Shown here piece after piece: positions 4,906 to 54,164 of a DNA stretch of 64,000 nucleotides; positions within the stretch are counted from its first letter, which is position 1; each line of letters begins with the position of its first letter. The stretch is from Doris montereyensis (Eukaryota; Mollusca; Gastropoda; Nudibranchia; Dorididae): contig JAXRKP010000854.1 in NCBI GenBank assembly GCA_037039925.1, positions 5,001 to 69,000 on the forward strand. Direction: 5' to 3'. Both the position numbers and the translations under genes were made by a program. Under the pieces are notes generated by a model. It did no database searches, was not told the DNA's origin, and saw only the letters and a list, made by a program, of their open reading frames with translations.

Positions 4906-4910
4906 CTCAG

Positions 4911-4976
4911 GCCCTGGATGCCAGAATAATTGTTGGGAATTTCTATGGAGACAAGGCGAGACTTGTCATGTGTGCT
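4911..4976 (+). CDS. Exon: GABA-B receptor-like ligand-binding domain (part 1)
   Basis: This is a 66-nt internal exon, phase 0 at both ends, coding 22 residues that contain ALDARIIVGNFY and then DKARLVMCA. It is bounded by a pyrimidine-rich acceptor ending in TTTATCCTCAG and a donor GTAAGT at 4977. The DxRIIvGxFyxxxAxxVxC pattern is typical of the extracellular Venus flytrap domain of metabotropic GABA-B receptors (class C GPCRs). These are plasma-membrane receptors that bind GABA and signal through Gi/o proteins. The call is strengthened by two further exons downstream, same strand, correct order, from the same domain. Upstream exons and the seven-helix region are not in the window. It could belong to a GABA-B-like paralogue rather than the true GABA-binding subunit. 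Homology is from memory of the family, not from a search. Confidence 0.78.
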
Positions 4977-5119
4977 GTAAGTTCAAGCCATTAGTTAGAA
5001 AACACATTTGTATAGTTCACATTGCAACACCTCTTTGTTGTTTACGCTATTTATCATTTTTATTGCTAAAGATCTAGATCTAGAATTATTTTCTTTGTCA
5101 TACTGCTATTTGGGCATCT

Positions 5120-5330
5120 TTCTCACTGTTTTTTTCTTTCTTCCTCCTTTTAATTTTTTCTTCTGACATCACATTGTGTGGTGCATTAAATAGTGCTTAG
5201 ATCTAGATCTAGGTTCTAGGTATTTCTCGTTTGATGTCTGACGAAGGGTTATACCTGAAACGTCACGTTTTTGTTCTGTATTCATTGGTGGAGTCATTTA
5301 TTGTCATTTGTCACCTTAGTTAGAAAGCAG
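5120..5330 (+). mobile_element. Dispersed hairpin element, 3' portion, + copy
   Basis: Runs from a CT-rich lead-in through CTGACATCACATTGTGTGG and AGATCTAGATCT to CTGACGAAGGGTTATACC and ends near TTGTCATTTGTCACC. The same ordered blocks recur at ten other places in the window in both orientations, which is what marks it as a dispersed element. This copy has no adjoining 22-bp array. No coding capacity is visible. Confidence 0.75.
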
Positions 5331-5576
5331 TACATTCGTACGGAGTTACAATTAAAGACATATTCATATAACTAATATTAAAGACATATTCCTATAACCA
5401 ATAACTACAACTACAATACTATATCGTTGAGCATAAAGCATACAATAAAGTTAATAATTTATTAATAATATTACGCATACAAATCGAACTTTTTAAACAC
5501 TAGATATCATACATTATCATCAAAAAGCCAATACTATTGTGAAAGCTGCGAGCTCCTAGATAATCCTTAGCAGCAA
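5331..5576. other. AT-rich intronic stretch
   Basis: Low-complexity AT-rich sequence containing a local duplication of TTAAAGACATATTC (about 5354 and 5380). No exon, RNA or mobile element was recognised. Confidence 0.4.
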
Positions 5577-6518
5577 GGTAGGAATGCCACGCAGTGAAAT
5601 CTACCATTGGGCTCTGGTGGCAAGGTAGGAATGCCACGCAGCCAATATACCATTGGGTCCTGGTAGCAAGGTAAGAATACCACGCAACGAATCTACCATT
5701 GGGTCCTGGTGGCAAGGTAAGAATACCACGCAACGAATCTACCATTGGGCCCCGGTGGCAAGGTAGGAATGCCACGCAGTGAATCTACCATTGGGCCCTA
5801 GTGGCAAGGTAGGAATGCCACGCAGTGAATCTACCATTGGGCCCTAGTGGCAAAGTAAGAATACCACGCAACGAATCTACCATTGGGCCCTGGTGGCAAG
5901 GTAAGAATACCACTCAACGAATCTACCATTGGGTCCTGGTTGCAAGGTAGGAATGCCACGAGCAAATCTATCGTTAGGCCCTGGTGTCAAGGTAGGAATG
6001 GCACGGAGCGAATCTACCATTGGACCCTAGTGGCAAGGTAGGAATGTCACGCAGCGAATCTACCAATGGGCTCTGGTGGCAAGGTAGGAATGCCACGCAG
6101 CAAATATCTACCATGGTGCCCTGGTGGCAAGGTAGGAATGCCACGCAGCGAATCTACCAATGGGCCCTAGTGGCAAGGTAGGAATGTCACGCAGTGAATC
6201 TACCAATGGGCCCTAGTGGCAAGGTAGGAATGTCACGCAGCGAATCTACCAATGGGCCCTAGTGGCAAGGTAGGAATGCCACGCAGCGAATCTACCAATG
6301 GGCCCTGGTGGCAAGGTAGGAATGTCTCAGCGAATCTACCAATGGGCCCTGGTAGCAAGGTAGGAATGTCACTGTAGCGAATCTACCAATGGGCCCTGGT
6401 GGCAAGGTAGGAATGTCACGTGGGAGAATCTACCAATGGGCCCTGGTGGCAAGGTAGGAATGTCATGCAGGTAATCTACCAATGGGCCCTGATGGCAAGG
6501 TAGGAATGCCACGCAGCT
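5577..6518. repeat. 46-bp tandem array, about 20 copies
   Basis: The unit contains GGCAAGGTAGGAATGCCACG then CAGCGAATCTACCAATGGG and CCCTAGT. Spacing is 46 bp. The first third has AATACCACGCAACGAATC variants and the latter part AATGTCACGCAGCG variants, so sub-blocks were homogenised separately. Each unit carries GGGCCC inside a longer imperfect palindrome (ACCA...TGGT). Confidence 0.93.
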
Positions 6519-6889: not shown

Positions 6890-7018
6890 GCTTTTCAACT
6901 TGACACAACAGGCGAGTGGTACAAGAAGCTGGTTTGGCTTTTGCCATCATTTTTGGATCGTCGGTGGGTTGACCGCAAGGAAAATCTGAAAAATTGTACT
7001 TCTGCTAATATAAGACAG
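6890..7018 (+). CDS. Exon: GABA-B receptor-like ligand-binding domain (part 2)
   Basis: This is a 129-nt exon of 43 codons, phase 0 at both ends, so it joins in frame to the exon at 4911-4976. The peptide begins AFQLDTTGEWYKKLVWLLP and continues through a RRWVDRK block to ENLKNCTSANIRQ. The YxxxVWxLxxxxxxxxW...NCT pattern corresponds to the stretch that follows the DARIIVG segment in GABA-B receptors. NCT is a potential N-glycosylation site, as expected for an ectodomain. The donor is CAG|GCAAGT, a GC-AG intron with an otherwise strong consensus. An alternative acceptor at 6911 would put the rest out of frame, so 6890 was chosen. A (CA)n-type microsatellite begins about 50 bp after the donor. 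Family assignment is by motif recognition only. Confidence 0.78.
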
Positions 7019-7067
7019 GCAAGTTTTTACACAAATTAATATACTTATGAAGGCATATCCTATCTTT

Positions 7068-7385
7068 TCAGATACACACACACACACGCGCGCGCACACA
7101 CACAAACGCATACACACAGACACACAGATACATACACACACCCAGATAGACATACACAGACACACACACAGACACACACACAGACACACACACAGACACA
7201 CGCACACAGACACACACAGACACACACAGACACACACACAGACACACACAGACACACACACACAGACACACACAGACAGGCACACATACACAGACACACA
7301 CACAGACATACAGACACAGACACAGACACACACACAGACACACACAAAGACACACACAGACACGCACACACAGACATACAAAAAC
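7068..7385. repeat. CA/CAGA microsatellite
   Basis: About 320 bp of CACACA interspersed with CAGACA. Open frames on both strands (TH-rich or CV-rich peptides) are artefacts of the dinucleotide repeat. Confidence 0.95.
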
Positions 7386-7519
7386 CAATGCGCGGATACA
7401 CCTCATACATATACGGATTTACAGGTAGAAATAAGATGAATTAAACAAAAATATTAAATCTCTTTCTATTCATGTGTGCTCATTAATGCTTGTTAAAGTC
7501 AATAATTATCCATTCCTAG

Positions 7520-7660
7520 ACACACATACACACATACCGACACATAAAAAAATGTGAAAGCCAAAAACCTAACGACCCTCACAAATACAACACACACACG
7601 CACAGAAACACGCATACAAACACACACACAAAGACAAACACACATACAAACACTGACAGT
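7520..7660. repeat. Degenerate CA-rich microsatellite
   Basis: Interrupted ACACAC/ACAAAC runs, a weaker relative of the microsatellite at 7068-7385. It leads directly into a retrotransposon remnant. Confidence 0.75.
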
Positions 7661-7699
7661 AACAACAACTGACCATACTAACACTATCCAAAGCATAAT

Positions 7700-8015
7700 G
7701 ATAATACATTTTGACATGAATTGTTGGGGTGGGGAACGTAACAAAGCCAAAATGAAAATAAAATTGACAGAATCCTTTCTTAGGCAAGAAACGTTATCAA
7801 GCAGGACATACCAACATTTCAAGAACTTTTCAATCTTGATATTCTAAACAAAGGAAAACAGATTCTAGAGGACGATAGTCGCCATCTAAATGAAACAAAA
7901 AATATATATATATAAGATCTACTAAGAGCAGACGACTTCTGTCAATTCAAGCCAGAACAGAAAGATACAAAAATTCATTTATTCCAACATCTACAAGAAA
8001 AATGAAGTCCTATGA
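7700..8015 (+). mobile_element. Non-LTR retrotransposon remnant (reverse transcriptase C-terminus)
   Basis: Broken coding sequence from the end of a LINE-type polyprotein. One frame reads NCWGGERNKAKMKIKLTESF (from about 7719). A +1 shift near 7783 opens ARNVIKQDIPTFQELFN followed by ILNKGKQILEDDSRHLN. A second shift after an AT-run near 7905 opens SRRLLSIQARTERYKNSF and IPTSTRKM. The order CWGGN-like, R(A/K)..I....P...E.., KIL.D.SHPLN-like, SGRR-like, RT.RY.NSFIP matches what follows the polymerase domain in many invertebrate LINEs. Stops, two frameshifts and a missing LLPSG motif show it is dead. It sits inside the receptor intron on the same strand as the gene. Confidence 0.72.
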
Positions 8016-8151
8016 CGTACATAATGTAATTAATTCCCTCTGGAAATTATGCTGTATATGTATTACTGTGAACATTATCCTAAGCATCATATAGTAAAAT
8101 GATTCATTGTGTGTGTATGCGTGTGTCTGCGTGTGTGTGTATGTAATACAG

Positions 8152-8604
<453 letters not shown>

Positions 8605-8814
8605 GATAGATAGAGAGCTTCCAGAGGTTCAATGTATTTCCCAGAAGACTTCTTTATAGGAGACTTTTTCTTTGAGAGAGAGAGATTCTAGTCTTGTAGA
8701 GAGACAGTTACATTTTTCAGAGGAGAGAGAGTTAGAGATAGTTTGAGAAAGAGAAGGAGAAGATAAACAGACAGACAGACAGAGATAGGTTTCAAGATAA
8801 ACAGAGAGGGAGAA

Positions 8815-10245
8815 AGCTACTTCTCCATATGCTCTACACCCCTTTTGCTTCAGAGGTTGTAAGAAACCACTTCTTTATAGGATCTACGTTTTGACCCGGC
8901 CCTCGTTGTGCCTACGTCCCCCCATAGGTTGTAGAAAGCTACTTTTTCATAGGATCTACGTCCGTTTACTCCATAGTTTGTAGAAAAAGCTACTTCTTCG
9001 CCCCATAGGTTCTACGTCCCCTTTGCCATAGGCTGTATAAATTGTAGATAGGTATTTCATCATAGGTTCAATGTATTTCCCATTCCCCTTTGCCCCATAG
9101 GTGGTAGAAAGCTACTTCTTCATAGGTTCTACGTCTTCTTTTCTCCAAAAGATTGTAAAGCTATTCTCTTCTCCCCATAGGATGTCCCATAAGTTAGAAG
9201 GCTACGTTTTCATAGATTCTACGTCTTGTTACCCTCGTAGGTTGTAGACAGTTACGTTTTCATAGGTTCTATAGTCCTCTATGCCCCATAAGTTGTAAGC
9301 TCCTTCTTATTTCCTCCATAGGTTCACCGTCCCTCTATGTCCCAAAGGTTGCAGAAAGCCACTTTTTCATAGGTTCTACGTCCCCTTTGCCCATAGGTCA
9401 AGTTGTAGAAATCTACTTCTTGTAGCTACTTTTCATAGGAATTTTACATTCCCTTTTGTCCCATAGGTTGTGAAGATATTTCTTCATGGGTTCTACGTTC
9501 CCTTTGCCCCCATATCTTGTCATAGGTTCTACGCTACGTAGTTATAGGTTCTACGTCCTCTTTGTCCCATATGTTGTAGAAAGTAAGTATTTCTCCTTAG
9601 GTTGTACGTTCCATTTGCTCCATATCTTGAAGCTCTTCTTCAGAGGTTCTACGACCCCTTTGTCCCATATGTTGTACAAAGTTACTTGTTCACAGGTTGT
9701 ACGTCGTCTTTGCCCCATAGGTCATACGACGCTGTTGTATTTATACTTCTTTACGTCCCCGTCTTCTTCCCATTTTGCACTTCTTCATAGTTTCTACGTC
9801 CCCTTTTGCCCCATTAGTTACATCCCTTTGCATAGTAAAACACTTCTTCATATTGTTTCTACGTACTTCCCCATAGGTTGTAGAAAGTTACTTCTTCATA
9901 TGTTCCCATGCCCATAGGATTTAGCAAACTACTTCTTTATTGGTTCTACGTTTCTGCCGTATGCCCATAGGATGTAAGAAGTTACTTCTTTATTGGTTCT
10001 TGCCCATAGGATGTCAAACTACTTCTTTATTTCTACGTCCCTTTTAGCCCATAGGATTAGCAAACTACTTCTTTATATGTATGCCCATAGGAAGCAAACT
10101 CCTTCTTTATAGGTTTCTTCACCCCATAGATGTTCTACGTGTCGTATCTCAAACTACTTCTTTATTGTTCTCGCCCATATGTAGCTGGTTCTAGGTCCTT
10201 TATACCCCATAAGCTAAGGAGTTAGGTTCTTCTTTTCATAGGTAA
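8815..10245 (+). repeat. 50-bp tandem array, diverged left block
   Basis: Copies of a 50-bp unit containing CTACTTCTTCATAGGTTCTA then CGTCCCCTTTGCCCCATAG and GTTGTAGAAAG. This block is strongly eroded, with many truncated units. It has the same orientation as the main block at 12790-16390, so the two were probably one array split by the inverted elements between them. Confidence 0.85.
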
Positions 10246-11310
10246 TACGAATGAGCCACCGTGGAGTCAAGTCAAAGGGAAATATGACAATAAGTGACAA
10301 CTCCACTAATACAGACAGAACAAACACGTGATGTTTCGGGTATAACACTTCTTCATGTGTTTTACGTCCCCAGACAACAAACTTAGAAATATTCCTTAGA
10401 ATCTAGATCTAAGTTGTAATACCTCCGGCATCACACAATGTGATGTCTTTTTCATAGAAGAAAAACTGTAAAGAGAAAGAAAGAAAGAAAAAGACAGTGA
10501 TGTTAAGAAACGTAGAAAGAGGGGGTATGAAAAAAGAGTTGTAAAAAGTTACTTCTGGAAGGTTCCAGATCTAGAATGAAATAAAAATATGAAAATAAGT
10601 AAGTAACAAAAAAGGTGAGAAGGAGACTAGAGAGAATGAGAGAAAGAGAGCAAAGAGAGAGGTCCTTTAGAGATAAGAGAGTTATTTCTTCAGAGGAGAG
10701 AGAGAGTCAGAGAGAGAGTCAAAGGAGAAATATGAGATAGAAGAAAGACCTAAGAGAAGAGAACAGAGTGAGAGACGTGAGAGTATAACCTTTCGAGACA
10801 AGAACGAGAAATAGGATAAATCTAGAGAGAGAGAGATGTGATGTCTAGAAGAAGAAATGATAGAGAATGAGAGAAAGAGAGAAAGTAAATCAAGTACAAA
10901 AACAGAGCAGGTGGAAGGAAATCTAGAATAAATAAAAATTGAAAATCAGTAAGTAACAAAGGTGAAGAATTAAAGAAACTGAGAAAAGAAGAGCAGGGAA
11001 AGAAACCTAAGAAGAAGAAAAAAGGAGAGAGACGTATGAACAATAACTTTCTCTAACCTATGGGAGAATGAGAAATGATGAAGTTTGGACAAAAAAAAGT
11101 TATCGGGGGAAATCAAAGGGAAAGAGACGTGAACCTGTGAGTATTATAAAAAGAACGAATAAATTATAAATGTAAACTGGATCTTTCACTGAAGTCAGGA
11201 AGAGATTAATCTCTTCAACTTATCAATCAAGAAAATTTGTAACTGAAGGTGCGAAATGCCAAATTTATCGATGTCTTGATTGATACTTGTTTTCAAACAT
11301 TTCTAGAAAC
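10246..11310 (-). mobile_element. Dispersed hairpin element, long copy, minus orientation
   Basis: Read on the minus strand this matches the spacers at 28893-29613 and related loci. The minus-strand order is a CTTCAGT block followed by a long CT-rich tract (seen here as GA-rich 10450-11050), the CATCACATTGTGTGATG palindrome, AGATCTAGAT, and the hairpin segment ending in GTCACTTATTGTCATA at about 10280. The hairpin region here is mutated (TTTCGGGTATAACACTTC on the + strand), so the stem is not intact. No open frame of interest was seen. Confidence 0.7.
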
Positions 11311-11470
11311 CTATGATCTAGATTTCAACAATGGGGCAAAGGCGACATAGACGTATGAACAGCTTTCTTTCTCTAACCTATGGGGCAAAGGGGAAGAAAT
11401 GACAAAAAAAGTTTGTACAAGCTATGGGACAAAGGGAGAAGCAGTTACTATCAAAACATATGATCTAGGA
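11311..11470 (-). repeat. Antisense copies of the 50-bp unit
   Basis: AACCTATGGGGCAAAGGGG and CTATGGGACAAAGGGAG are reverse complements of the CCCTTTGCCCCATAGG core of the flanking 50-bp arrays. A few eroded units lie here between two oppositely oriented elements, so this is part of a large inverted arrangement. Confidence 0.65.
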
Positions 11471-11879
11471 CATTTATGACGTCTTGTTTCGAAATGTTTT
11501 CTTTCTCTCTTTCTCATAAAATAATATAAAATTATAAAAAAACTGGCATTTTTTGAAATTTCAGATAAGTTCTTTAATCTCTGTCTCCTTATTCTCTCTC
11601 TCTGATAAATTTGTTTATATACATTCTCTTACCTTCATCGATAAATTTCTTGATTGCTATATACTTGCTTTCATTCATTCTCTATCATTTCTTCATTCTA
11701 GACTCATATAGATCTAGTCGACATTTTTCGTTCTTGTTTAGATCTCAGTCTTACATTTATCTATCATTTCTCTTCTTTCTAGACCCAGTGAGATATAGAT
11801 CTAGTCGTACATTTATTTTTTCGTTCTTGTTTCCTACGTCCCTCTCTCCCTTTTTTTTCGTTTCTTTCTTTTTCTCTTT

Positions 11880-12165
<286 letters not shown>

Positions 12166-12365
12166 GCTATATACTTGCTTTCATTCATTCTTCTCATTCA
12201 TTGTCTATCATTTCTTCATTCTAGACCCATTGAGATATAGATCTAGTCGTACATTTATCCTATCATTTCTTCTTTCTAGACCCAGAGATATAGATCTAGT
12301 CGTACATTTATCCTATTTTTCGTTCTTGTTTCCCATACTCACGTCCCTCTCTTCTTTCTTCATCA

Positions 12366-12600
<235 letters not shown>

Positions 12601-12789
12601 TTCTCTCATTCTTCTTCATTCATTCTCTGTTTCTTCTTTCTAGACCCAGTGAGATATCGTCTAGTACATTTTTTCGTTCTTGTTTCCCTAGTCCCTCTCT
12701 CCCTTTCTTTCTTCCCTCTGTTTTCTTTCTTTTTCTCTCTTTCTCCCTATGCCCCATAGGTTTTCTCGCTCCCTCTCCTCTCTCTCTCT

Positions 12790-15700
12790 CTCTCTCTCTC
12801 GCTCAAAAACTACTTCTTCATAAGTTCTACGTCCCCTTTGCCCCATAAGTTATTTTCAGGAAGCTTACTTCTTCATAGGTTCTTAACATATTGTCCCTTT
12901 CGTCCTTTTGCCCCACAGGTTGTAGGAAACTAGATCTGTAAATAGTTTCTACGTGCCCTTCCTACCATAAGTTGGAGAAAGCTACTTCTTCCATATGTTC
13001 TACGTCCCCTTTCCCCATAAGTTTGTCATACAGGTTGAAGAAGGGTACTTGCCCTTTCATAGTTGTTCTTCCACATTCCTTTTGTTACAGGTTGTCATAC
13101 TTTGTTCTAAGAAGCAATTTCTTCATAGGTTCTACTCGCCCTTTGCCCCATAAGTTTTAGGAATCTACGTATTCTTAGGTTCTTCATCTTTTTTGTCCCA
13201 TACGTTGTAGGGATCTACGTTTTCATAGGTTCTACGTCCCCTGTATCCAATTGGTTGTAGGAAGCAACTTCTTCATAGGTTCGACGTCGTCATTGTCCCA
13301 TATGTTGTAGGTAACTGCTTCTCCTTAGTTCCTACGTCCCCTTTGTCCCATTGCTTGTACAAACTTTTTTCATAGGTTCTTTGTCCCCTTTGCCTCATAG
13401 GTTAGAGAAGTTATTGTTCATACGTTCTACGTCGCCTTTGCCCCATAGGCTGTTGAAATCTACATCTTCATAGGTTTTACTTATTGGCTCTGCCACCTTT
13501 GCCCCATAGTTTGTAGAAAGCTACTTCTTCATAAGTTCTACGTCCCCTTATCCCCATAGGTTAGAGAAAGTTATTCTTCATAAGGTCTACGCCACCTTTG
13601 CCCCATAGGTCGTAAAAAGCTACTTCGTCACTGGTTCTACGTCCCCTTTACCTCATAAGTTGTGGAAAGCTACTTCGTCATAGATTCTACATCCTCTTTG
13701 CCCCATAGGTTGTAAAAAGCTACTTCGTCATAGGTTCTACGTCCCCTTTGCCCCATAGGTTGTAAAAAGCTACTTCGTCATAGATTCTACGTCCCCATCG
13801 TCCCATAGGCTGTAGAAAGCTACTTCTTCATAGGTTCTACGTATTGGCCCAACCCCCTGTGCCCCACAGGTTGTAGGAAACTACATCTATATAGTTTTTT
13901 TCGTCCCTTTTGTCCCATAGGTTGTATAAAGCTACTTCTTCATATGTAATATGTCCCCTTTGTCCCATACGTTGTAAAAAATGCTTGTTCATAGGTTCTA
14001 CATCCCATACATCGTGAGAAGCTGTTTCTTCATAGGTTTTACTTCGCCGTCACCCCATAGGTTATAAGAAGATACATATTCATAGGTTATACGTCCCCTT
14101 TGCCCAAAAGGTTATAGGAAGCTAGTTCTAGGTAGATTATACGTCCACTTTGTCCCTAGGTTGTAGAAAGCTACTTCTTCAGAGGCTCTACATCCTCGTT
14201 TCCCCATGGGTTGTAGAAAGCTACTTCTTCAGAGGTCTATATTTCTACGTCCTTGTTTCCCCATGGGTTGTAGAAAACTACTTCTTCGTAGATTCTACGT
14301 CCCCTTTGCCCCATAGGTTGTAGAAAGCTACTTCTTCAGAGGTTCTACTTCCTCGTTTCCCCATCGGTTATAGAAAGTTAATTCTTCAGAGGTTCTACGT
14401 CCTCGTTTCCCCATCGGTTGTAGAAAGCTACATCTTCATAGGTTCGGCGTCCCCTTTATTCCATAAGTTGTAGGAAGCTACGTATTCATATGTGCTACGT
14501 CCCTTTGGAGCCATATGTTGTAGGAAGCTACTTCTTCATAGGTTATACGTCCCCTGTGCCACATAGGTTATGGAAAGCTACTTCTCAATAGTTACTACGC
14601 CCCCTTTGTAGGAAGATACCTATTCATAGGTTATACGTCTCCGTTGCCCCATATGTTATATAAAGCTACTTCTTCATAGGTTCTACGTCGCCTTTGTCGC
14701 ATAGTTGTAAAAAGTGACTTCTTCATAGGTTGTACGCCCCCCTTGTCCCATTGGTTGTAGAAAGCTACTTGTTCAGAGGTTTTACGTCCCCTCTGCCCCA
14801 TTGGTTGTAGGAATCTACTTCTATATAGGTTTCACGTATACCTTTGCTCGATAGGTTGTAGAAAGATGCGTCTTCATAGGTTCTACGTCCCCTGTGTGCC
14901 ATAAGTTGTAGGAAGTTAATTCTTTATAGGCTCTACGTCCTCTATACCCCATAAGTTGTAGAACATTACTTCTTCATATGTTGAACGTCCCATTTACCCC
15001 TTAGGTTATAGAAAGCTACTTCTTTATCGATTCTACGTCCCCTTCGCTTCATAGGTTGTAGAAAGTTACTTCTTTATAAGTACAACGTCCCTTTGTCCCG
15101 TGAGTTGTAGAAAGCTACATATATATGTGCTACATCCCTTTTCAGCCATATGTTGTAGGAAGCTACTTCTTCATAGGTTCTACGTCCTCTTTGCCCCATA
15201 GCTTGTAGAAAGCTAATTCTTCATATGTTCTACGTCCCCTTTGCCCCATAAGTTGTAGAAAGCTCCTTCTTCAAAGGTTCTACGTCCCCTTTGCCCCATA
15301 AGTTGTAGAACGCTACTTCTTCACAGGTTCTACGTCCCCTGTGCCCCATAACTTGTAGAAAGCTACTTTTTCATAGGTTCTACGTCCCCTTAGCCCCATA
15401 AGTTGTAGAATGCTACCTCTTCATAGGTTCTACTCCCCTTTGCCCCATAAGTTGTAGAAAGCTATTTCTTTATAGGTTGTACGTTCCCTTAGCCCTATAA
15501 GTTGTTGAAAGCTACTTCTTCATATGTTCTACGTTCCCTTAGCCCTATCAGTTGTAGAAAGCTACTTCTTTATATGTTCTACGTCCCCTTAGCCCCATAA
15601 GTTTTAGAAAGATACTTTTTCATAGGTGTTACGTCTTCTTTGCCCCATAGATTCTAGGAAGCTACTTCTTCATAGGTTTTACGTCTTCTTTGCCCCATAG

Positions 15701-16390
15701 ATTTTAGGAAGCTACTTCTTCATAGGTTTTACGTCTTCTTTGGCCCATAGATTTTAGGAAGCTACTTCTTCATAGGGTTTACGTCTTCTTTGCCCCATAG
15801 ATTTTAGGAAGCTACTTCTTCATAGGTTTTACATATTCTTTGCCCCATAGATTTTAGGAAGCTACTTCTTCATAGGTTCGACGTCCCTTTTTGTCCCATA
15901 GGTTGTAGAAGGCTACTTCTTCATAAGTTCTACGTCCCCGTAGCCCCATACGTTGTAGAAAGCTACTTCTTCATAAGTTATACGTCCCCTTTGCCCTATA
16001 AGTTGTAGAAAGCTGCTTTGTCATATGTTTTACGTCTTTTTTTTGCCCCGTAGATTTTAGAAAGCTACTTCTTCATAGGTTCGATGTCCTCTTTATCGCA
16101 TAAGATGTAAGAAGCTACATATTTATTTGTGCCATGTCTGTCCCTTTTGAGCTATATGTTGTAGAAAGCTACTCCGTAATAGGTTCGACGTCCCTTTGCC
16201 CCATAAGTTGTAGATAACTAGTCCTTCATAGGTTCTACGTCCCCTTTGCCCCATAAGTTATAGAAAACTACTCCTTCATAGGTTCTACGTCCCCTTTGCT
16301 CTATAAGTTGTAGAAAACTATTCCTTCATAGGTTCTACGTCCCATTTGCCCCATAGGTTGCCGGAAGCTACTTCTTCACAGGTTCGCCAG
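12790..16390 (+). repeat. 50-bp tandem array, main block, about 70 copies
   Basis: The unit is GTTGTAGAAAGCTACTTCTT, CATAGGTTCTACGTCCCC and TTTGCCCCATAG, 50 bp in total. Units between about 15220 and 15600 are the best conserved. A local subfamily with ATTTTAGGAAGCTACTTC and TTTTACGTCTTC repeats in series at 15630-15860. Sequence drifts gradually at the left edge. Confidence 0.95.
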
Positions 16391-16585
16391 CTCACGTCGA
16401 TGAGGATGGCTACCAACCAGTAGGTGATTTTCCTCGGGGACCAGGAGTTCATTTATACGAGTAGGTATATTTACACAGCTTATATTCTCTTGCAGGCATC
16501 TATTTTTAAGCTCAAAACTTTACAATTTATACATGTAGGTATGTTTATATTAATTATATTATTTATTTAAGAATTGAATATTAAT
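16391..16585. other. Unique island after the 50-bp array
   Basis: The first ~75 bp (16391-16465) is GC-richer than its surroundings and is open in one + frame, with a peptide containing HVDEDGYQPVGDFPRGPG. It is flanked by a CAG before and GAGTAGGT after, which resemble splice sites. The peptide does not match the missing receptor segment and I could not assign it. The rest is AT-rich with no feature. Confidence 0.35.
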
Positions 16586-42587: not shown

Positions 42588-43387
42588 GCTATTAACCAAC
42601 TTACCAAATTATATTTACCAACTGGCCAAATTCTATTTTTCAACTGACCAAATTCTATTGACCAACTGGCCAAATTCTATTTACCAACTTGCCAAATTTA
42701 CCAACTGGCCAAATTCTATTTTCCAACTGACCAAATTCTCTTTACCAACTTGCCAAATTTATTTACCAACTTGCCAAATTCTATTTACAAACTGGCCAAA
42801 TTCTATTTTTACCAACTGACCAAATTCTATTTACCACTGGCCAAATTCTATTTTTAACTGACCAAATTCTATTTACCAACTGGCCAAATTCTGGCCAAAT
42901 TCTTTTAACTGACCAAATTTTATTTACCAACTGGCCAAATTCTATTTACCAACTGGCCAAATTCTATTTACCAACCGGCCAAATTCTATTTACCAACTGG
43001 CCAAATTCTCTTTTTTAACTGACCAAATTTTATTTACCAACTGGCCAAATTCTCTTTACCAACTGGCCAAATTCTTTTTACACCTTGCCAAATTCTATTT
43101 ACCAACTGGCCAAATTCTATTTACCAACTTGCCAAATTCTATTTACCAACTTGCCAAATTCTATTTACCATCTTGCCAAATTCTATTTACCGACTTGCCA
43201 AATTCTATTTACCAACTTGCCAAATTCTATTTTACTAACTGGCCAAATTCTATTAACCAACTTGTCAAAGTCTATCGACCAACTTCCCATACTCTATTAA
43301 CCAACTTGCCAAACTCTATTAACCGACTTGCCAAATTTTATGAACCAACTTCCCAAACTTTATTGACCAACTTGCCATACTCTATTA
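42588..43387 (+). repeat. 22-bp tandem array, copy 5, about 36 units
   Basis: TGGCC/TGACC alternation on the left gives way to uniform TTGCC units from about 43085. The last ~150 bp (TTGTCAAAGTCTATCGACC onward) is almost identical to the end of copy 2, which indicates joint duplication. Confidence 0.94.
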
Positions 43388-43549
43388 AGGCAAAATATCA
43401 CAATCAGTGACAATTCCACTAATAAAGACAGAACAAACACGTGATGTTTTGGGTATAGCCCTTCGTCAGACAACAAACGAAAGATATCTAGAATCTAGAT
43501 CTAAGTAATACCTCCGGCATCACACAATGTGGTGTCAGAAGAAAAACAC
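43388..43549 (-). mobile_element. Hairpin element end, minus copy
   Basis: Almost identical to the minus copy at 30391-30555, including the TTTTGGG change and AATGTGGTGTCAGAAGAAAA at its outer end. This supports duplication of a block containing both. Confidence 0.8.
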
Positions 43550-46328
43550 AAGTTCACCATTTACCGGAAGCCCGTTTTCACACGGTTTCTTACCATTACG
43601 GAATACGCTCACCATTTACCGCAAACAACTTTGCGCATGGTTTCTTACCATTACGGATTACATTCACCATTTAGCAGAATATCGTTTTGCGCACTGTTTC
43701 TTACCATTACGGAATACATTCACCATTTAGCAGAAGAACCTTTGCGCATAGTTTCTTACCGTTTCACCATTACGGAATACGTTTCACCATTTACCATTTA
43801 GAGGATGCAACTTTGCATGGTTTCTTACCAGAATACGTTTTTTACCATTAGGGAATACGTTCACCATTAAACTGGAAGAACCTTTGCACACAATTTCTTA
43901 CCATTGTGGAATACGTTCACCATTTACCGGAAGCAACTTTGTGCTCAGTTTCTTACCATTACGGAATACATTCACCATTTACCGGATGCAACATTGCGCA
44001 TGGTTTCTTACCATTACGGAATAAGTTCACCATTTACCGAAAAGACCTTTGCTCACAGTTTCATACCATTAGGAATACGTTTACCATTTACCTGAAGCAA
44101 CTTTGCACACAGTTACTTACCATTAAAGAATGCGCTCACCATTTACCGAAGGCAACTTTGAGCGTGGTTTCTTACCATTATGGAATACGTTCACTATTTA
44201 CCGGATGCAACATTGCGCATGGTTTCTTACCATTACGGAATATGTTCACCATTTATCGGAATCATATTTGCGCACGGTTTCTTACCATTACGGAATACGT
44301 TCACCGTTTACCGGAAGCAACTTTGCGCTCGGTTTCTTACCATTACAGAATACGTTCACCATTTACCGGATGCAACATTGTGCACGGTTTCTTACCATTA
44401 TTTAATATGTTCACCATTTATCGGAAGCATCTTTGTGCACGGTTTCTTACCATTAGGGAATACGTTTACCATTTACCTGAAGCAACTTTGCACACAGTTA
44501 CTTACCATTACAAAATGCGCTCACCACTTACCGAAGGCAACTTTGAACGTGGTTTCTTACCATTATGGAATACGTTCACTATTTACCGGATGCAACATTG
44601 CGCATGGTTTCTTACCATTACGGAATATGTTCACCATTTATCGGAATCCTCTTTGCGCACGGTTTCTTACCATTACGGAATACGTTCACCGTTTACCGGA
44701 AGCAACTTTTGCGCTCGGTTTCTTACCATTACAGAATACATTCACCATTTACCGGATGCAACATTGTGCACGGTTTCTTACCATTACTTAATATGTTCAC
44801 CATTTATCGGAAGCATCTTTGTGCACGGTTTCATGCCATTTAGGAATATGTTCAACATTTACTGGTAGCAACTTTTGCGCACAGTTTCTTGACCATTATG
44901 GGATATGTTCACCATTTACCGGAAGAACTTTGCGTATGGTTTCTTACCATTTAGGAATGCGTTCAACCTTTACTGGAAACAACTTTACGCACGGTTTCTT
45001 ACCATTATGGAATACGTTCACCATTTACAGGAAGAACCTTTGAACACAGTTTCTTACCATTATGGAATACGTTCACCATTTACAGGAAGCAACTTTGCGT
45101 TCGGTTTCTTACCATTTCGGAATACATTCCCATTTACCTGATGCAACATTGCGCACGGTTTCTTACCATTACGGAATATGTCCACCTTTTACCGAAAAGA
45201 CCTTTGCTCAGAGTTTCTTACCATTACGGAATACGTTCACCATTTACCTGAAGCAACTTTGCACACAGTTTCTCACCATTTCGGAATGCGCTCACCATTT
45301 ACTGGAAGAAACTTTGCGTGTGGTTTTTTACCATTACGGAATACGTTCACCATTTACAGGAAGAACCTTTGCACACAGTTTCTTACCATTGGGGAATACG
45401 TTCACCTTTACCGGAAGCAACTTTGCGATCGGTTTCTTACCATTACGGAATACTTTCACCATTTACCGGATGCAACATTGCGCACAGTTTCTTACCATTA
45501 CGGAATAAGTTCACCATTTATCGGAAGCATCTTTGCGCGTGGTTTCTTACCATTACGGAATACGTTCACCGCTTTACCGAAGCAACTTTGCACTCGGTTT
45601 CTTACCATTACAGAATACGTTCACCATTTGCCAGAAGCAACCTTGCACACAGTTTCTTACCATTACGGAATATGTTCACCATTTACCGAAAAAGTCCTTT
45701 GCTCAGAGTTTCTTAACATTACGGAATACGTTCACCTTTTACCCCAAGCAACTTTGCGCACAGTTTCTTACCTTTATGGAATACATTCACCATTTACGTG
45801 GGAAAAACGTTTGCACACAGTTTCTTACAATTATGGAATCGCTCACCATTTACATGAAGCAACTTTGGCGTGGTTTCTTACCATTACGGAATCGTTTGCC
45901 ATTTTTCGAAAGCAACTTTGCGTTGGTTTCTTCCCATTAAGGAATATGTTCACCACTTACCGAAGAACTTTGCTCACGGTTTCTTACCTTTACGGTATGC
46001 GTTCACCATTTATCGGAAGCAACGTTGCGTGTAGTTTCTTACCATCACGGATTACGTTCACCATTTACCTGAAGCAACTTTGTGTATGGTTTCTTACCAT
46101 TACGGAATACGTTCATCATTTACAGAAAGCAAATTTGCGCACGTTTTCTTACCATTATGGAATACGTTCACCATTTACGTGAAGCAACTTTGCGCACGGT
46201 TTGTTACCATTTAGGAATCTGTTCAACCTTTACCGGAAACAACTTTGCGCACGGTTTCTTACCATTACAGAATACCTGCACCATATACCGGAAGAAAATT
46301 TGCGCACGTTTTCTTTCCATTACGGAAT
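43550..46328 (+). repeat. 55-bp tandem array, segment 5, about 51 units
   Basis: More regular than segments 3 and 4. A block of about 400 bp is directly duplicated: GAATGCGCTCACCA... through CATTATGGAATACGTTCAC appears near 44127-44190 and again near 44513-44575 with few differences. Confidence 0.94.
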
Positions 46329-47049
46329 AGACCCTATTTTATCAAGAATAGAAAATACTTGAAAAGGCTTTGATAACTTGGATAACATCAGCTAGTCCTA
46401 AGTGGCATTTTTTTGAAATTTCAGATAAGTTGCTTACTCTCTTGCCTTATTGCGTTGATAAATTTGAAATTTATATACATTTCAGACCTTCAGTGTAAAT
46501 TTTTGCTTTGATTGATACTTCCTTTCATTCATTCTCTATCATTTCTTCTTCCTAGCGCCAATGAAATATAGATGTAGACTTACATTTATCCTATTTTTTC
46601 GTTCTTGTTTCCCATACTCAAACGTCTCTCTCTCCGTTTCTTACTTCCCTGCCTTTTTTTTCTTTCTTCATCTCTCTCTCTTTCTCTTTATATCTGTCAT
46701 TCTCTCTATCTCCTTCTCACCTTTTATTACTTAGTTATTTCCATATGTTTTATTTACTCTAAATCTGAACGTTCCACTCTCGCTCATTCTTCATACTCCC
46801 TCTGCTACGTTTCTTATCATCACTGTCTTTTTCTTTCTTTCGTTCTCCTTTATATTTTTCTTCTGACATCACATTGTGTGATGCCGGAAGTATTACTTAG
46901 ATCTAGATTCTAGATATTTCTCGTTTGTTGTCTGACGAAGGGTTATACCCGAAAAGTCACATGTTTGTTCTGTCTTTATTAGTGGAGTTGTCACTTATTG
47001 TCATATTTCGCCTCTGACTTCACTCCACTGTAGCTCCTTCGTATTACAT
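46329..47049 (+). mobile_element. 0.7 kb spacer with hairpin element, + copy E
   Basis: The most diverged of the five spacers (ATCAAGAATAGAAAATACTT at its start). CTGACGA at 46932 and the GGGTTATACCC stem are intact, but the following box reads GAAAAGTCAC. Confidence 0.8.
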
Positions 47050-47800
47050 GCTCTATTTACCATCTTGCCAAATTCTATTGACCAACTTGCCAAATCCTCT
47101 TTACCAACTTACCAAATTCTATTTACCAACTTACCAAATTTTATTGACCAACTTGCAAAATTCTATTTAACAACTTGCCAAATCATATTTACTAACTTGC
47201 CAAATTCTATTTACTAACTTGCCAAATTCTATTAACTCACTGGCCGAATTCTTTTAACCAACTTGCTAAAGTCTATTTACTAATTGGCCACATTCTCTTT
47301 ACCAACTTGCCAAATTCTATTCACGAACTGGCCAAATTCTAATTCCCAACTGACGAAATTTTATTAATTAACTTGCCAAATTCTATTTACTAGCTTGCTA
47401 AATTCTATGTACCAACTTGCCAAATTCTCTTTACCAACTTGCCAAATTCTATTTACCAACTGGCCAAATTCTATTTACCAACTTGCCAAAGTCTATTTAC
47501 CAACTTGCCAAATTCTATTTACCAACTTGCCAAATTCTATTAACCAACTTGGCAAAGTCTATTCACCATCCTGCCAAATTCTATTTATAACTTGCCAAAT
47601 CATATTGACCAACTTGCCAAACTCTATTAACCAACTTGCCAAATTCTATTAACCAACTTGCCAAACTCTATTAAGCCAACTTGCCCTATAAGCCAACTTG
47701 CCATACTCTATTGACCAACTTGCCATACTCTATTAACCAAATTACCCAACTCTATTACCCAACTTGCCAAACTTTATTGACCAACTTGCCATACTCTATT
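47050..47800 (+). repeat. 22-bp tandem array, copy 6, about 34 units
   Basis: Mostly CAACTTGCCAAATTCTATTT units, with few TGACC variants. It lies between + copy E and the last minus copy. Confidence 0.93.
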
Positions 47801-47960
47801 CAGGCAAAATATGACAATAAGTGACAACTCCACCAATAAAACAGAACAAACAAGTGATGTTTTAAGTATAACCCTAGTCAGACAACAATCGAGAAATATC
47901 TAGAAACTAGATCTCAGTAATACCTCCGGCATCACACAATGTGGTGTCAGAAGAAAAACA
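47801..47960 (-). mobile_element. Hairpin element end, minus copy
   Basis: Contains GTGACAACTCCACCAATAAA, a further decayed hairpin complement (TTTTAAGTATAACCC), and CCGGCATCACACAATGTGGT to GTCAGAAGAAAA. It is the third clear case of a + element, 22-bp array, minus element arrangement. Confidence 0.78.
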
Positions 47961-48149
47961 CACCTTCAGCATTTACCGGAAGCACTGTTTCACACGGTTT
48001 CTTACCATTAAGGAATACGTTCACCATTTACCTAAAGCAACTTTGCGCACAGTTTCTAACCATTACGGAATATGTTCTCCATTTACCCGAAGCAATTTTG
48101 TGCACAGTTTCTCACCATTACGCAATACGTTCACCATTTTCCGGAAGCA
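47961..48149 (+). repeat. Truncated 55-bp array, about 3 units
   Basis: Three to four units then an abrupt change, within CCGGAAGCACTCGACAAATG, to the 38-bp array. The expected remaining ~2-3 kb of 55-bp array and spacer is absent, so the higher-order series ends by truncation. Confidence 0.9.
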
Positions 48150-51100
48150 CTCGACAAATGTGCCTTTTGCCAACACTTAGGTGTAACATCGGCAAATGCT
48201 CCTTTTGGCAACACCTAGGTGTAACATCGACAAATGTGCCTTTTCGTAACACCTAGGTGTAACATCGACAAATGTGTCTTTTGGCAACACCTAGGTGTAA
48301 CATCGACCAATGCGCCCTTTGACAATGCCTAGGTGTAACATTGACTACTGCGTCTTTTGACAACTCCTAGGTGTAACAGCGACTAATGTAGCCTTTGACC
48401 ACACCTAGATGTAACATCGACTAATGTAGCCTTTGACAACACCTAGGTGTAACATCGACTAATGCAGCGTTGGCCAACACCTAGGTGTAACATCGAAAAA
48501 TGTAGCCTTTGACATCACCTAGGTGTAACATAAACTAATGTAGCCTTTGCCAACAACTAGCTGTAACGTCAACTAATGTAGCCTTTGACAACACCTAGGT
48601 GTGACATCGACTAATGCAGCGTTCGCCAACACCTAGGTGTAACACCGACTAATGTAGCCTTTGACAACACCTAGGTGTAACATCGACTAATGTAGCCTTT
48701 GACGACAACTAGGTGTAACGTCGACTAATGTAGCCTTTGACAACACCTAGATGTAACATCGACTAATGTAGCCTTTGACAACAACTAGGTGTAACATCGA
48801 CTAATGCAGCGTTGGCCAACACCTAGGTGTAACATCGAGAAATGTAGCCTTTGACATCACCTACGTGTAACATAAACTAATGTAGCCTTTGACAACAACT
48901 AGCTGTAACGTCAACTAATGTAGCCTTTGACAACACCTAGGTGTGACATCGACTAATGCAGCGTTCGCCAACACCTAGGTGTAACACCGACTAATGTAGC
49001 CTTTGACAACACCTAGGTGTAACATCGACTAATGTAGCCTTTGACGACAACTAGGTGTAACGTCGACTAATGTAGCCTTTGACAACACCTAGGTGTAACA
49101 TCAACTAATGTAGCGTTAGACAACACCTAGGTGTAACGTTGACAAATGTAGCCTTTGACAACACCTAGGTGTAACGTCGACTAATGTAGCATTTGACAAC
49201 ACCTAGGTGTAACATCGAGTAATGTAGCTTTTGACAACATCTAGGTGTAACATCGACTAATGTGCCTTTTGACAACACCTAGGTGTAACATCGACTAATG
49301 TGCCTTTTGACAACACCTAGGTGTAACATCGACAAGTGTGCCTTTTGGCAACACCCAGGTGTAACATCGACTAGTGTGCCTTTTGGCAACACCTAGGTGT
49401 AACAGCGACGAATGTGCCTTTTGGCAACACCTAGGTATAACATCGACAAATGTGCCTTTTTGCAACACCTGTAACATCGACAAATGTAGCCTTTCGACAA
49501 CACCTAGGTGAAACATCGACAAATGTGCCTTTTGGCAACTCCTAGCTGTAACATCGATAAATGTGCTTTTTGGCGAAACGTGGGTCTAACATCGACAAAT
49601 GTGACTTTTGGGAACACCTAGGTGTAACATCGACAAATGTGACTTTTGGCGAAACATGGGTGTAACATCGCAAATGTGACTTTTGGCAACACGTAGGTGT
49701 AAATCGGCAAATGTGACTTTTGACAACACCTAGGTATAACATCGACAAATTTGACTTTTGGCAAAACGTCGATGTAACATCGACAAATGTGACTTTTAGC
49801 AAAACGTGGGTGTAACATCAACAAATGTAACTTTTGGCAAAACGTGGGCTTAACATCGACAAATGTGCCTTTTGGCAACACCTAAGTGTAACATCGATAA
49901 ATGTGACTTTTGACAACACCTAGGTGTAACATCGACAAATATGACTTTTGGTAACACCTAGGTGTAACATCGACTAATGTGTCTTTTAACAAAACCTAGG
50001 CGTAACATCGACAAATGTGCTTTTTAACAACACCTAGGTAACATCGAAAAATGTGTCTTTTGTCAACACTTAGATGTAACATCGACAAATGTGCCTTTTG
50101 ACAACACCTATGTGTAACATCAACAAATGTCCCGTTCGGTAACACCTAGGTGTAACATCGACAAATGCGCTTTTTGCAACACCTAGGTGTAACATCGACA
50201 AATGTGTCTTTTGGCAACACCTAGGTGTAACATCGATTAAGGTGCCCTTTGACAATGCCTAGTTCTAACATTGACTAATGCGTCTTTTGACAAATGCTAG
50301 GTGTAACATCGACTAATGTAGCCTTTGACAACACCTAGGTGTAACATCGACTAATGTAGCCTTTGACAACACCTAGGTGTAACATCGACTAATGTAGCCT
50401 TTGACAACACCTAGGTGTAACATCGACTAATATAGCCTTTGACAACACCTAGGTGTAATATCGACTAATGTAGCCTTTGACAACACCTAGGTGTAACATC
50501 GACTAATGTAGACTTTAACAACACCTAGGTGTAACATGGACTAATGTAGTCTTTGACACCACTTAGGTGTAACATCGACAAATGTGCCTTTTTGCAACAC
50601 CTAGCTGTAGCATCGACTAATGCTCCCTCTGACAACACCTAGATGGAACATCAACTAATGCGCCCTTTGACAACACCTAGATGGAACATCAACTAATGCG
50701 CCCTTTGACAACACCTAGATGGAACATCAACTAATGTTGCCCTTTGACAACACCTAGATGGAACATCAACTAATGCGCCCTTTGACAACACCTACGTGTT
50801 ACATCAACTAATGCGCCCTTTGACAACACCTACGTGTTACATCAACTAATGCGCCCTTTGACAACACCTACGTGTAACATCAACTAATGCGCCCTTTGAC
50901 AACACTTACGTGTAACATCGACTAATGCACCCTTTGACAACACCTATGTGTAACATCAACTAATGCGACCTTTGACAACACTTACGTGTAACATCGACTA
51001 ATGCGCCCTTTGACAACACCTACGTGTAACATCAACTAATGCGCCCTTTGACAACACCTACGTGTAACATCGACTAATGCGCCGTTTGACAACGCCTACG

Positions 51101-53415
51101 TGTATCATCGACTAATGCGCGTTTTGACAACACCTAGGTGTAACATCGACTAATGTGCCTTTTGGCAACACTTCGGTGTAACACCGAAAACTGTAACTTT
51201 TAGCGAAAGATGGGTGTAACATCAAAAAATGTGACTTTTAACAACACTTCGGTGTAACATCGGCAAATGTGACTTTCGGCAACACCTAGGTGTAACATCG
51301 AAAAATGGGACTTTTAACAACACTTGGGTGTAACATCGACAAATGTGACTTTTGACAAAACGTGGGTGCAACATCGACAAATATGCCGTTTGGCAAAACG
51401 TGGGTGCAACATCGACAAATGTGCCTTTTGACAACACCTAGATGTAACATCGACAACTGCGACTTTCTGCAACACCTAGGTGTAACATCGACAAATGTGT
51501 CTTTGGGCAACACCTAGGTGTAACATCGACTAATGTAGCCTTTGACAACACCTATGTGTAACATCGACTAGTGACGCCTTTGACAACACCTAGGTGTAAC
51601 ATCGACTAATGTAGCCTTTGACAACACCTAGGTGTAACATTGACTAATGTAGCCTTTGACAACACCTAGGTGTAACGTCGATTAATGTTGCGTTTGACAC
51701 CACTTAGGTGTAACATTGAAAAATGTGCCTTTTGGCAACACCTAGCTGTAACATCGCCTAATGCACCCTCTGACAACACCTAGATGTAACATCGGCTAAT
51801 GCGCCCTTTGACAACACCTAGGTGTAACATAGACTAATGTGCCCTTTCACAACACCTAGGTGTAACATCGACTAATGTGCCATTTGACAACGCCCACGTG
51901 TTATATCGACTAATGCGCCTTTTGACAACACCTAGGTGTAACAGCGACAAATGTTCCTTTTGGTAACACCTAGGTGTAACATCGACTAATGTGACTGTTG
52001 GCAACATCTAGGTGTAACATCCACAAATGTGACTGTTGACAAAAACGTGAATGTAACATCGACAAATGTGACTTATCGCAAAACGTGGGTGTAACATCAA
52101 CAAATGTGCCTTTTGGCAAAACGTGGATTTAACATCAAGAAATGTGACATTTGGCAACACCTAGGTGTAACATTCACAAATGTGACTTTTGGCAAAACGT
52201 GGGTGTAATATCGACAAATGTGACTTTTGACAACACCTAGGTGTAACATCGACAAATGTGCCTTTCAGCAACATCTAGGTGTAACATCGACTAATGTGCC
52301 TTTTAACAACACCTAGGTGTAACATCGACAAATGTGCCTTTTAACAAAACCTAGTTGTAACATCGGCAAATGTGCCTTTTAACTACACCTGTGTGTAACA
52401 TCGACAAATGTGCCTTTTAACAACACGTAAGTGTAAATTCGAGAAATGTGCCTTTTGGCTACACTTAGGTGTAACATAGACAAATGTGCCTTGTGACAAC
52501 ACCTAGGTGTAACATCGACTAAAGTAACCTTTGCCAACACCTAGGTGTAATATCGACTAATGTAGTCTTTGACAACACCTAGGTGTAACATCGACTAATG
52601 TAGTCTTTGACAACACCTAGGTGTAACATCGACTAATGTAGCCTTTGACAACACCTAGGTGTAACATCGACTAATGCAGTCTTTGACAACACCTAGGTGT
52701 AACATCGACTAATGTAGCCTTTGACAACACCTAGGTGTAATATCGACTAATGTAGCCTTTGACAACACCTAGGTGTAATATCGACTAATGTAGCCTTTGA
52801 CACAACTTAGATGTAACAGCGACAAATGTGCCTTTTGGCAACACCTAGCTGTAACATCGACTAATGCTCCCTCTGAAAACACCTAGATGTAACATCGACT
52901 AATGCGCCCTTTGACAACACCTAAGTGTATCAACGACTAATGCGCCCTTTGACAACACCTAGGTGTAACATCGACTAATGCGCCCTTTGACAACGCCTAC
53001 GTGTATCATCGACTAAGGCGCCTTTTGACAACACCTAAGTGTAACATAGACAAATGTGCTTTTTGGTAACCCCTAGGTGTAACATCGATAAATGTGCCTT
53101 TTGCCAACACCTGGGTGTAACATCGACTAATGTGCCTTTTGCCAACACCTGGGTGTAACATCGACTAATGTGCCTTTTGGCAACACCTGGGTGTAACATC
53201 GACTAATGTGCCTTTTGCCAACACCTGGGTGTAACATCGACTAATGTGCCTTTTGCCAACACCTGGGTGTAACATCGACAAATGTGTCTTTTCGCAACAC
53301 GTAGGCGTAACATCGAGAAATGTGCCTTTGGGCAACACTTAGGTGTAACATCGACTAATGTGCCTTTTGCCAACGCCAAGGTGAAATTTTTACCCACGTG
53401 CCTTTTTGCAACGTG
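48150..53415 (+). repeat. 38-bp tandem array, block 3, about 139 copies
   Basis: Same unit and orientation as blocks 1 and 2. A nine-unit (342-bp) higher-order repeat is visible: GCAGCGTTGG at 48464 and 48806, and GCAGCGTTCG at 48616 and 48958. Units near 49560-49870, 51190-51420 and 52020-52230 have AAACGTGGGTGTAAC instead of CACCTAGGTGTAAC. The last units (53100-53290) form a homogeneous run with CCAACACCTGGGTGTAAC. Confidence 0.96.
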
Positions 53416-53670
53416 CAGTTCCAGAATGGAATAAGCGTCCACCTAGCGTTATAAAAGCTCAGACCACTGAACACATTTTAAACAACGCTTCTACGTGATA
53501 TGTAACTAATAAAATCATCTGCGAGATAGGCGAATATGTCCTTTGCAGATTAATGAACAGAAACAGAAGCAGAAACATAATACCAATTTTTCCCTCTCTT
53601 TTACGTAAAATATTTTCATACCCATATCACATACCCCACCCCTCCCCTCCCCCAACACCCAAAAAGGAAG
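53416..53670. other. Unique intron end upstream of exon 3
   Basis: Non-repetitive. It ends in a strong C/T-rich tract (53583-53655, with a CCCCACCCCTCCCCTCCCCC-like core) followed by AAAAAGGAAG, giving possible acceptors at 53666 and 53670. I found no additional receptor exon here. Confidence 0.6.
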
Positions 53671-53839
53671 GTGAAAGATGTCATCCCATGCAAGTTTGAC
53701 AAATTATATCGGGCTTCCGGTTGCCATAGTAACACTAGCAGTGTCAGCTGCCATTTACACGCGCAACACAGAGCCGCAGAAGCTTACGACGCTGTTTGGG
53801 CCATAGCACTTGCTTTGAACAACACACTGTCCTACCTTG
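53671..53839 (+). CDS. Exon: GABA-B receptor-like ligand-binding domain (part 3)
   Basis: The recognisable core is EAYDAVWAIALALNNTLSY, matching the AYDAIWALALALN segment of the GABA-B receptor Venus flytrap domain, which lies C-terminal to the two segments coded upstream. The donor is CCTTG|GTAAGT (exon end 53839). The frame stays open back through CKFDKLYRASGC and HLHAQHRAAEAY to the pyrimidine-rich acceptor. With the acceptor at 53670 the exon is 169 nt and enters in phase 0, which agrees with the phase-0 exit of the exon at 6890-7018. It leaves in phase 1. Acceptors at 53666, 53747, 53771 or 53779 are alternatives. NNT is a potential glycosylation site. An expected ~25-30 residues between part 2 and part 3 are not accounted for. 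Confidence 0.76.
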
Positions 53840-54125: not shown

Positions 54126-54164
54126 TTATACATGTCTATAGAGCTGAATGTTGAACCTTGGAAA

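What the first reader, a model, noticed from the sequence alone, without database searches (positions are those of the whole stretch)
4911..53839. GABA-B-receptor-like gene whose intron is almost entirely satellite DNA
Three + strand exons (4911-4976, 6890-7018, 53671-53839) encode consecutive parts of one class C GPCR ligand-binding domain in compatible phases. The intron between the second and third (7019-53670, about 46.7 kb) consists of at least four minisatellite families plus microsatellites. Splicing across this much tandem DNA, and its variation in copy number, could affect expression of a neurotransmitter receptor. Exon identity is from motif knowledge; the gene-model join is inference.
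Basis: partly seen in the sequence, partly recalled or inferred. Interest (0 to 1): 0.75.

Follow-up and report, generated by a model that had tools for sequence, protein, structure and literature searches.

The report
GABA-B-like receptor gene, minisatellite-filled introns
Three small exons of an animal GABA-B-like receptor gene really do sit among tandem repeats that make up about four fifths of a 47-kb intron; the arrangement looks real, but it is an extreme case in a genome that is rich in such repeats.

Summary
Exons A (4911-4976), B (6890-7018) and C (53671-53839) match GABA-B receptors in order, strand and phase. Three further exons (D: last ligand-binding part; E: TM2; F: TM3) follow on the same contig beyond the window. 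A second contig, C2449, carries the same repeats, exon C (168 of 169 bases, one silent change) and the start of exon D. So one gene is likely. Intron B-C is 78-79% tandem repeats: four minisatellite families (50, 38, 22, 55 bp), microsatellites and a compound repeat with five spacer copies. The 50- and 38-bp families were found only here and in C2449 among listed matches. Tandem repeats cover 30% of 59 kb sampled elsewhere, so the intron is extreme, not unique. Between the two copies the 38-bp array differs by one unit, the 56-bp array by 561 bp. Unsettled: B-C is 15 residues shorter than GABBR1 there, perhaps an unrecognised exon. One unit of the 50-bp array (15055-15099) is a speculative candidate; its tests conflict. 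No effect on expression was tested.

The parts
4911..4976 (+). Exon A, GABA-B-like ligand-binding lobe 2 (ALDARIIVGNFYGDKARLVMCA)
6890..7018 (+). Exon B; GC-type donor CAG|GCAAGT
53671..53839 (+). Exon C; second copy in contig C2449 with one silent difference
7019..53670 (+). Intron B-C, 46,652 bp, 77.6% TRF / 78.9% named families
1..4211 (+). 49-bp minisatellite upstream of exon A
4368..4904 (+). 67-bp minisatellite ending 6 bp before exon A; its last unit runs into the pyrimidine tract (by eye)
5573..6517 (+). 46-bp minisatellite in intron A-B
7069..8617 (+). CA, AT and AG microsatellites with unique DNA between
8811..10249 (+). 50-bp minisatellite, degraded / indel-rich part
11873..12596 (+). 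CT microsatellite
12806..16385 (+). 50-bp minisatellite, main part; all 48 genome-wide matches lie in this intron
15055..15099 (+). Speculative 45-nt exon candidate inside the 50-bp array (VVESYFFISTTSLCP), phase 0, donor CCC|GTGAGT
   Evidence: against: 77, 83
16846..22486 (+). 38-bp minisatellite, first part
23176..26812 (+). 38-bp minisatellite, second part
26789..48149 (+). Compound higher-order repeat: 22-bp array, 55-bp array and ~735-bp spacer, repeated
28886..29620 (+). Spacer copy 1 (reference)
33902..34632 (+). Spacer copy 2, 98.0% identical to copy 1
37159..37893 (+). Spacer copy 3, 97.8% identical to copy 1
41864..42593 (+). Spacer copy 4, 98.2% identical to copy 1
46319..47057 (+). 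Spacer copy 5, 92.5% identical to copy 1
48151..53383 (+). 38-bp minisatellite next to exon C; 5,233 bp here, 5,194 bp in C2449, 0.4% substitutions
54175..57314 (+). 56-bp minisatellite in intron C-D; 3,140 bp here, 3,701 bp in C2449
57723..64000 (+). 25-bp minisatellite in intron C-D, continuing past the window; it ends 37 bp before exon D (contig 70542)

Best explanation
This is most likely one real animal gene for a divergent GABA-B-like class C receptor. Its introns have been enlarged by in-place tandem duplication of short local sequences. Each intron seen here carries its own minisatellites, and in intron B-C one stretch then duplicated again as a compound unit (22-bp array, 55-bp array, 735-bp spacer). 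The arrays are removed as ordinary intron sequence by splicing. The arrays look old (mean 5-14% substitutions from consensus); of those compared between two copies, one is nearly stable in length (38 bp) and one still varies (56 bp). Shown: exons, phases, array structure, the second copy, two families seen only at this locus and its copy. Inferred: transcription, splicing, age, in-place origin.
For: PDB and Pfam matches of the joined exons. Order in a scan of the window. Exon D joins exon C in phase; adding it raises the Pfam match from 3.6e-8 (A-C) to 3.3e-12 (A-D), and A-D align with recalled GABBR1 at 29% over 187 columns. Exon E's end and exon F align with recalled GABBR2 across their junction without a gap (exons). 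Second contig with the same arrays and exon C, and the start of exon D. The 50-bp and 38-bp families seen only at this locus and C2449 (both score few candidate regions, and 131's list is cut). None of nine window minisatellites in the loci held, apart from the two adjoining ones. Four spacers 92-98% identical to the first.
Against: Exon D alone hits no Pfam family and in the PDB only chance-level beta-lactamases (E 0.42 and up); it was picked by eye from an open-frame list. Exon F is below the 7tm_3 cut-off. No exon for TM1 or TM4-TM7 was found in the readable contig, and 72.5 kb of 205.6 kb reads N. B-C is 15 residues shorter than GABBR1. The exon C acceptor is weak in the window copy; C2449 has 51 bp more there with a T-rich tract. 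Two of three checkable GABA contacts are changed. Two array patches have 14-16% indels.
Confidence: 0.8

Rival explanations
1. The receptor gene is damaged: the exon for the strand after NCT..RQ was lost when repeats filled the intron, and what remains is a pseudogene or a receptor with a shortened lobe 2.
For: 43 residues where GABBR1 has 58; no convincing exon for the segment in a + versus - strand scan; a paralogue in the same genome keeps AVEGHFILSKTF in one piece with the preceding motif. Exon C differs between the two copies at 0.6% of sites, hardly less than its flanks (0.7% and 1.2%) and more than the 38-bp array (0.4%), so constraint is not shown.
Against: Exons A-F read without stops, with usable splice sites and phases that fit where neighbours are known; the one exon C difference is silent.
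Confidence: 0.3
2. Assembly artefact: unrelated exon pieces were joined across collapsed repeats.
For: Two array patches with 14-16% indels, and 5 further array segments with 3.4-8.4%; stretches of the contig that read N.
Against: A second contig has the same order from the 55-bp array through exon C to exon D; 14 of 21 array segments have 0.6-2.2% indels. The B side (window 1-44472) is not covered by a second contig.
Confidence: 0.08
3. The minisatellites are carried by a mobile element, as in oyster Helentron (Cg_HINE) elements.
For: The spacer's 3' part is a dispersed element, found in 3 other places among the loci held (hits to its CT-rich part set aside), and it adjoins 22-bp arrays; an inverted copy lies on the other side of 4 of 6 of those arrays.
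Against: At the three outside copies no array is seen in the roughly 100 bases after the element end (by eye); the two array families searched are seen only at this locus and its copy.
Confidence: 0.08

Closest known systems
Satellite-filled gigantic introns of Drosophila Y genes kl-3 and kl-5 (PMC6508621, abstract)
   Same: Coding exons separated by introns made mostly of tandem repeats
   Different: There megabases, over 99% of the locus, simple satellites, spermatocyte programme; here 47 kb, 78-79%, minisatellites of 22-55 bp, no RNA data
CACNA1C intronic 30-bp VNTR, TRACT (PMC13131567, abstract)
   Same: Kilobase-scale intronic minisatellite in a signalling gene, with length differences
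   Different: One family of 3-30+ kb in human; here four families plus a compound repeat in one intron and others in the neighbouring introns
Cg_HINE Helentron elements with tandem-repeat cores in Crassostrea gigas (PMC7492417, abstract and one section)
   Same: Tandem arrays beside dispersed-element sequence
   Different: Arrays seem private here; the three element copies inspected elsewhere carry no array
Tandem-repeat-rich genome of Nothobranchius furzeri, 21% (PMC2688266, abstract)
   Same: Genome-wide excess of tandem repeats
   Different: Different organism; the sample here gives 30% of 59 kb

Membership tests
Class C GPCR, GABA-B-like | Venus-flytrap ligand-binding domain of the ANF_receptor type | tested here: met
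   PF01094 E 3.3e-12 for exons A-D, profile 177-341 of 353; GABBR1 E 3.9e-7 for A-C. N-terminal half not seen
Class C GPCR, GABA-B-like | 7tm_3 transmembrane domain in the same gene | tested here: inconclusive
   TM3 exon PF00003 E 6.4e-5 but 23.2 bits against a cut-off of 33.5; TM2 exon tblastn E 0.002; TM1 and TM4-TM7 not found in readable sequence
GABA-B receptor (GABA-binding subunit) | GABA-contact residues Tyr250, Trp278, Glu349 | tested here: not met
   1 of 3 kept: Y, F, R (alignment; residues from passages of PMC6429233; mapping checked)
GABA-B receptor (GABA-binding subunit) | Lobe-1 contacts Trp65, Ser130, Ser153, His170 | not testable with these tools
   Upstream exons would lie before window 4911; contig 1-5000 reads N
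Intronic VNTR / minisatellite | Tandem array inside a spliced intron | tested here: inconclusive
   Arrays lie between colinear exons; splicing itself not shown
Intronic VNTR / minisatellite | Length differs between copies | tested here: met
   56-bp array 3,140 vs 3,701 bp, 38-bp array 5,233 vs 5,194 bp; whether C2449 is an allele or a duplicate is unknown
Drosophila-type gigantic satellite intron | Megabase size, over 99% satellite | tested here: not met
   46,652 bp, 78.9%
Helentron/HINE carrier | Array is the core of each element copy | tested here: not met
   No array seen at 3 of 3 outside element ends inspected by eye

The most novel reading that the evidence does not exclude
The missing receptor segment is encoded inside the 50-bp minisatellite. 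The array was seeded by, or has swallowed, the exon that should lie between B and C, so that many near-copies of a splice acceptor plus exon start (VVESYFFI, like AVEGHFIL in a paralogue) stand in a row. One unit (15055-15099, the only one of 20 open starts with a canonical donor) supplies a 15-residue exon that restores GABBR1's spacing of 58 residues.
Probability: 0.12. Interest if true: 0.75.

Novelty: new member of a known kind. Interest (0 to 1): 0.38.

Why it matters
It is a clear example of receptor exons standing between introns rebuilt, it seems, by local tandem duplication, with a second copy of part of the region that allows array stability to be measured. If the exon-in-minisatellite reading were true, it would show a minisatellite born from, and hiding, a coding exon, and an intron with many potential alternative splice acceptors for one receptor domain.

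Tried and rejected
Homologous-protein search with the 121-aa join found 3 candidates and no hit at E <= 0.001; its length filter excludes full-length receptors. No Rfam family at gathering score, no tRNA. Pfam found nothing in ten other open frames of the window and the PDB nothing for 16357-16461.

The candidate 15055-15099. For: best of 25 AG..GT candidates by family score, 14 against 8 for the next (filters: phase 0, pyrimidine-rich, donor match 5 of 9 or more). With recalled GABBR1 as single query the model rises from 40.0 to 47.6 bits, the highest of 25, and 1 of 300 shuffles reaches it. A similar score had chosen it, so this is not independent, and 13510 (47.5) and 46130 (46.0) come close. 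At AG contexts, 0 of 1,537 + strand sites outside the array and 0 of 3,352 - strand sites reach score 12, against 10 of 327 inside it; simulated chance per site of reaching the array consensus is 9.5e-5. In a 12-residue scan the 12 best + strand windows all lie in the 50-bp array, best 19.3 against 14.7 on the - strand. Against: over 25 residues the - strand scores higher (16.3 against 12.3 for 15055). The general Pfam profile falls from 46.6 to 43.1 bits when it is inserted; all six inserts tried lower it, this one and 9633 most. The array's many variant units also give many tries. Left as speculation.

The carrier-element idea was weakened. The organism was not identified; a mollusc-like look (AGATCTAGATCT motifs) is recall only. 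On checking, I lowered the main confidence (0.85 to 0.8) and raised the damaged-gene rival (0.25 to 0.3), because exon C is hardly more conserved than its flanks.

Full report
What is there. The window is bases 5001-69000 of a 205,632-bp contig (C3340) of a 513-Mb assembly. Joined, they match GABA-B receptors in solved structures (17 distinct sequences at E <= 1, all named GABA-B receptors, best 3.9e-7, subunit 1) and the ANF_receptor family. A GABBR1 piece searched against the whole window gives exon C (3e-4), exon A (8e-4) and, fourth and tied with three other places, exon B (0.89), in protein order on one strand. B is thus supported by position, phase and the joined match more than by its own score.

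One gene. Beyond the window on the same strand lie exon D (contig 70542 to about 70718), found by eye in an open-frame list, which completes the codon split at the end of exon C and improves the family match to 3.3e-12; exon E (83474-83594) and exon F (90745-90858), which align with recalled GABBR2 from TM2 into TM3 with no gap at their junction and one 4-residue gap inside E. Exon D alone has no Pfam hit and only chance-level PDB hits. TM3 alone is nearest GABA-B subunit 2, then GPR156 and subunit 1, so the subtype is not assigned. No exon for TM1 or TM4-TM7 was found, and 72.5 kb of the contig reads N. Genome-wide, the A-C query has four matches: the three exons and a copy of exon C in contig C2449. 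Exons D-F likewise have four: the three exons and the start of exon D at the end of C2449.

The second copy. Of C2449 (21,989 bp), 19,999 bp were read. It follows window 44473-63729 in order: 55-bp array, spacer, 22-bp array, short 55-bp stretch, 38-bp array, exon C, 56-bp array, 25-bp array. Exon C differs at 1 of 169 bases, GCG/GCA, silent. That is 0.6%, against 0.7% and 1.2% in the flanks and 0.4% in the 38-bp array, so no constraint is shown. The 38-bp array differs by one 38-bp unit and a few single bases in length; the 56-bp array by 561 bp, 4.4% and 86 gap events. Intron C-D is 11,702 against 12,528 bp. Whether this is the other allele or a recent duplicate cannot be told. No second contig was found for exons A and B.

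The intron. Of 46,652 bp, 77.6% is tandem by TRF and 78.9% by named families: a 50-bp family, a 38-bp family on both sides of a compound region, and 22-bp and 55-bp families that alternate with a 735-bp spacer. The spacer starts are 3.3-5.0 kb apart, and copies 2-5 are 92-98% identical to copy 1. Arrays average 5-14% substitutions from consensus; 14 of 21 array segments have 0.6-2.2% indels, five have 3.4-8.4%, and two (8811-10249, 34950-37169) have 14-16% and may be poor consensus. 55-bp arrays of different compound units are less alike (median best identity 81-93% in 165-bp pieces) than the spacers. The 50-bp family has 48 matches, all in this intron. The 38-bp family has 232; those listed (the list is cut) are all in this intron or C2449. 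Both searches score only a few best candidate regions and skip very common words. The 55-bp search did not complete.

How unusual. Of 22 stretches asked for elsewhere, one did not exist and three of 21 were unreadable. In the other 18, 17,545 of 59,000 bases (30%) are tandem and 3 reach 75%, against 13 of 21 3-kb pieces of the window. So this is the tail of a genome-wide habit.

The gap. GABBR1 has 58 residues between NCT and AYD; the model has 43. By my reading of the alignment the absent stretch may be up to about 27 residues. A GABA-B-like paralogue in the genome, which itself has an in-frame stop, carries the segment as AVEGHFILSKTF directly after the preceding motif. Either a small exon is hidden in the intron, or it was lost. 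The 50-bp array read from its internal AG gives VVESYFFIGSTS in the right phase and register. One unit has a canonical donor and would restore exactly 58 residues. One scoring method favours it and two do not (over 25 residues, 83). I rate this possible, not likely.

Function. Most likely an orphan or divergent GABA-B-like subunit whose arrays are passive intron filling. That arrays influence splicing is conceivable: minisatellite CeRep25B is over-represented near alternative splicing regions in C. elegans (PMC4039745, abstract). Nothing here tests it.

Noticed in passing
53385-53495: Open frame NFYPRAFLQRAVPEWNKRPPSVIKAQTTEHILNN resembles the end of a non-LTR reverse transcriptase (motif recalled; no Pfam hit), between the 38-bp array and exon C.
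   Followed up: partly
16357-16845: Unique 460-bp island (16386-16845) between the 50-bp and 38-bp arrays with coding-like reading PAHVDEDGYQPVGDFPRGPGVHLYE and splice-like signals; no family hit for three frames, no PDB hit for one.
   Followed up: partly
5123-5316, 10239-10661, 27202-27341, 30391-30549, 43388-43545, 47802-47957: Dispersed element ending about ..GGCTCCTTCGTATTA, also in L003/L004, L018 and L024; it lies inverted on the far side of 4 of 6 22-bp arrays.
   Followed up: partly
contig C3340 about 84.7-87.4 kb (L011): Non-LTR retrotransposon-like open frames on the + strand between exons E and F (by eye).
   Followed up: no
L033 7870-7640 (-), L005, L008: Other GABA-B-like receptor exons in the same genome; the L033 one has an in-frame stop.
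   Followed up: partly
4368-4904: The 67-bp array runs into the acceptor of exon A: the last unit seems to supply its pyrimidine tract, so the array touches a splice signal (by eye).
   Followed up: no
8811-10249, 34950-37169: Array patches with 14-16% insertions and deletions, unlike the rest; possibly poor consensus.
   Followed up: partly
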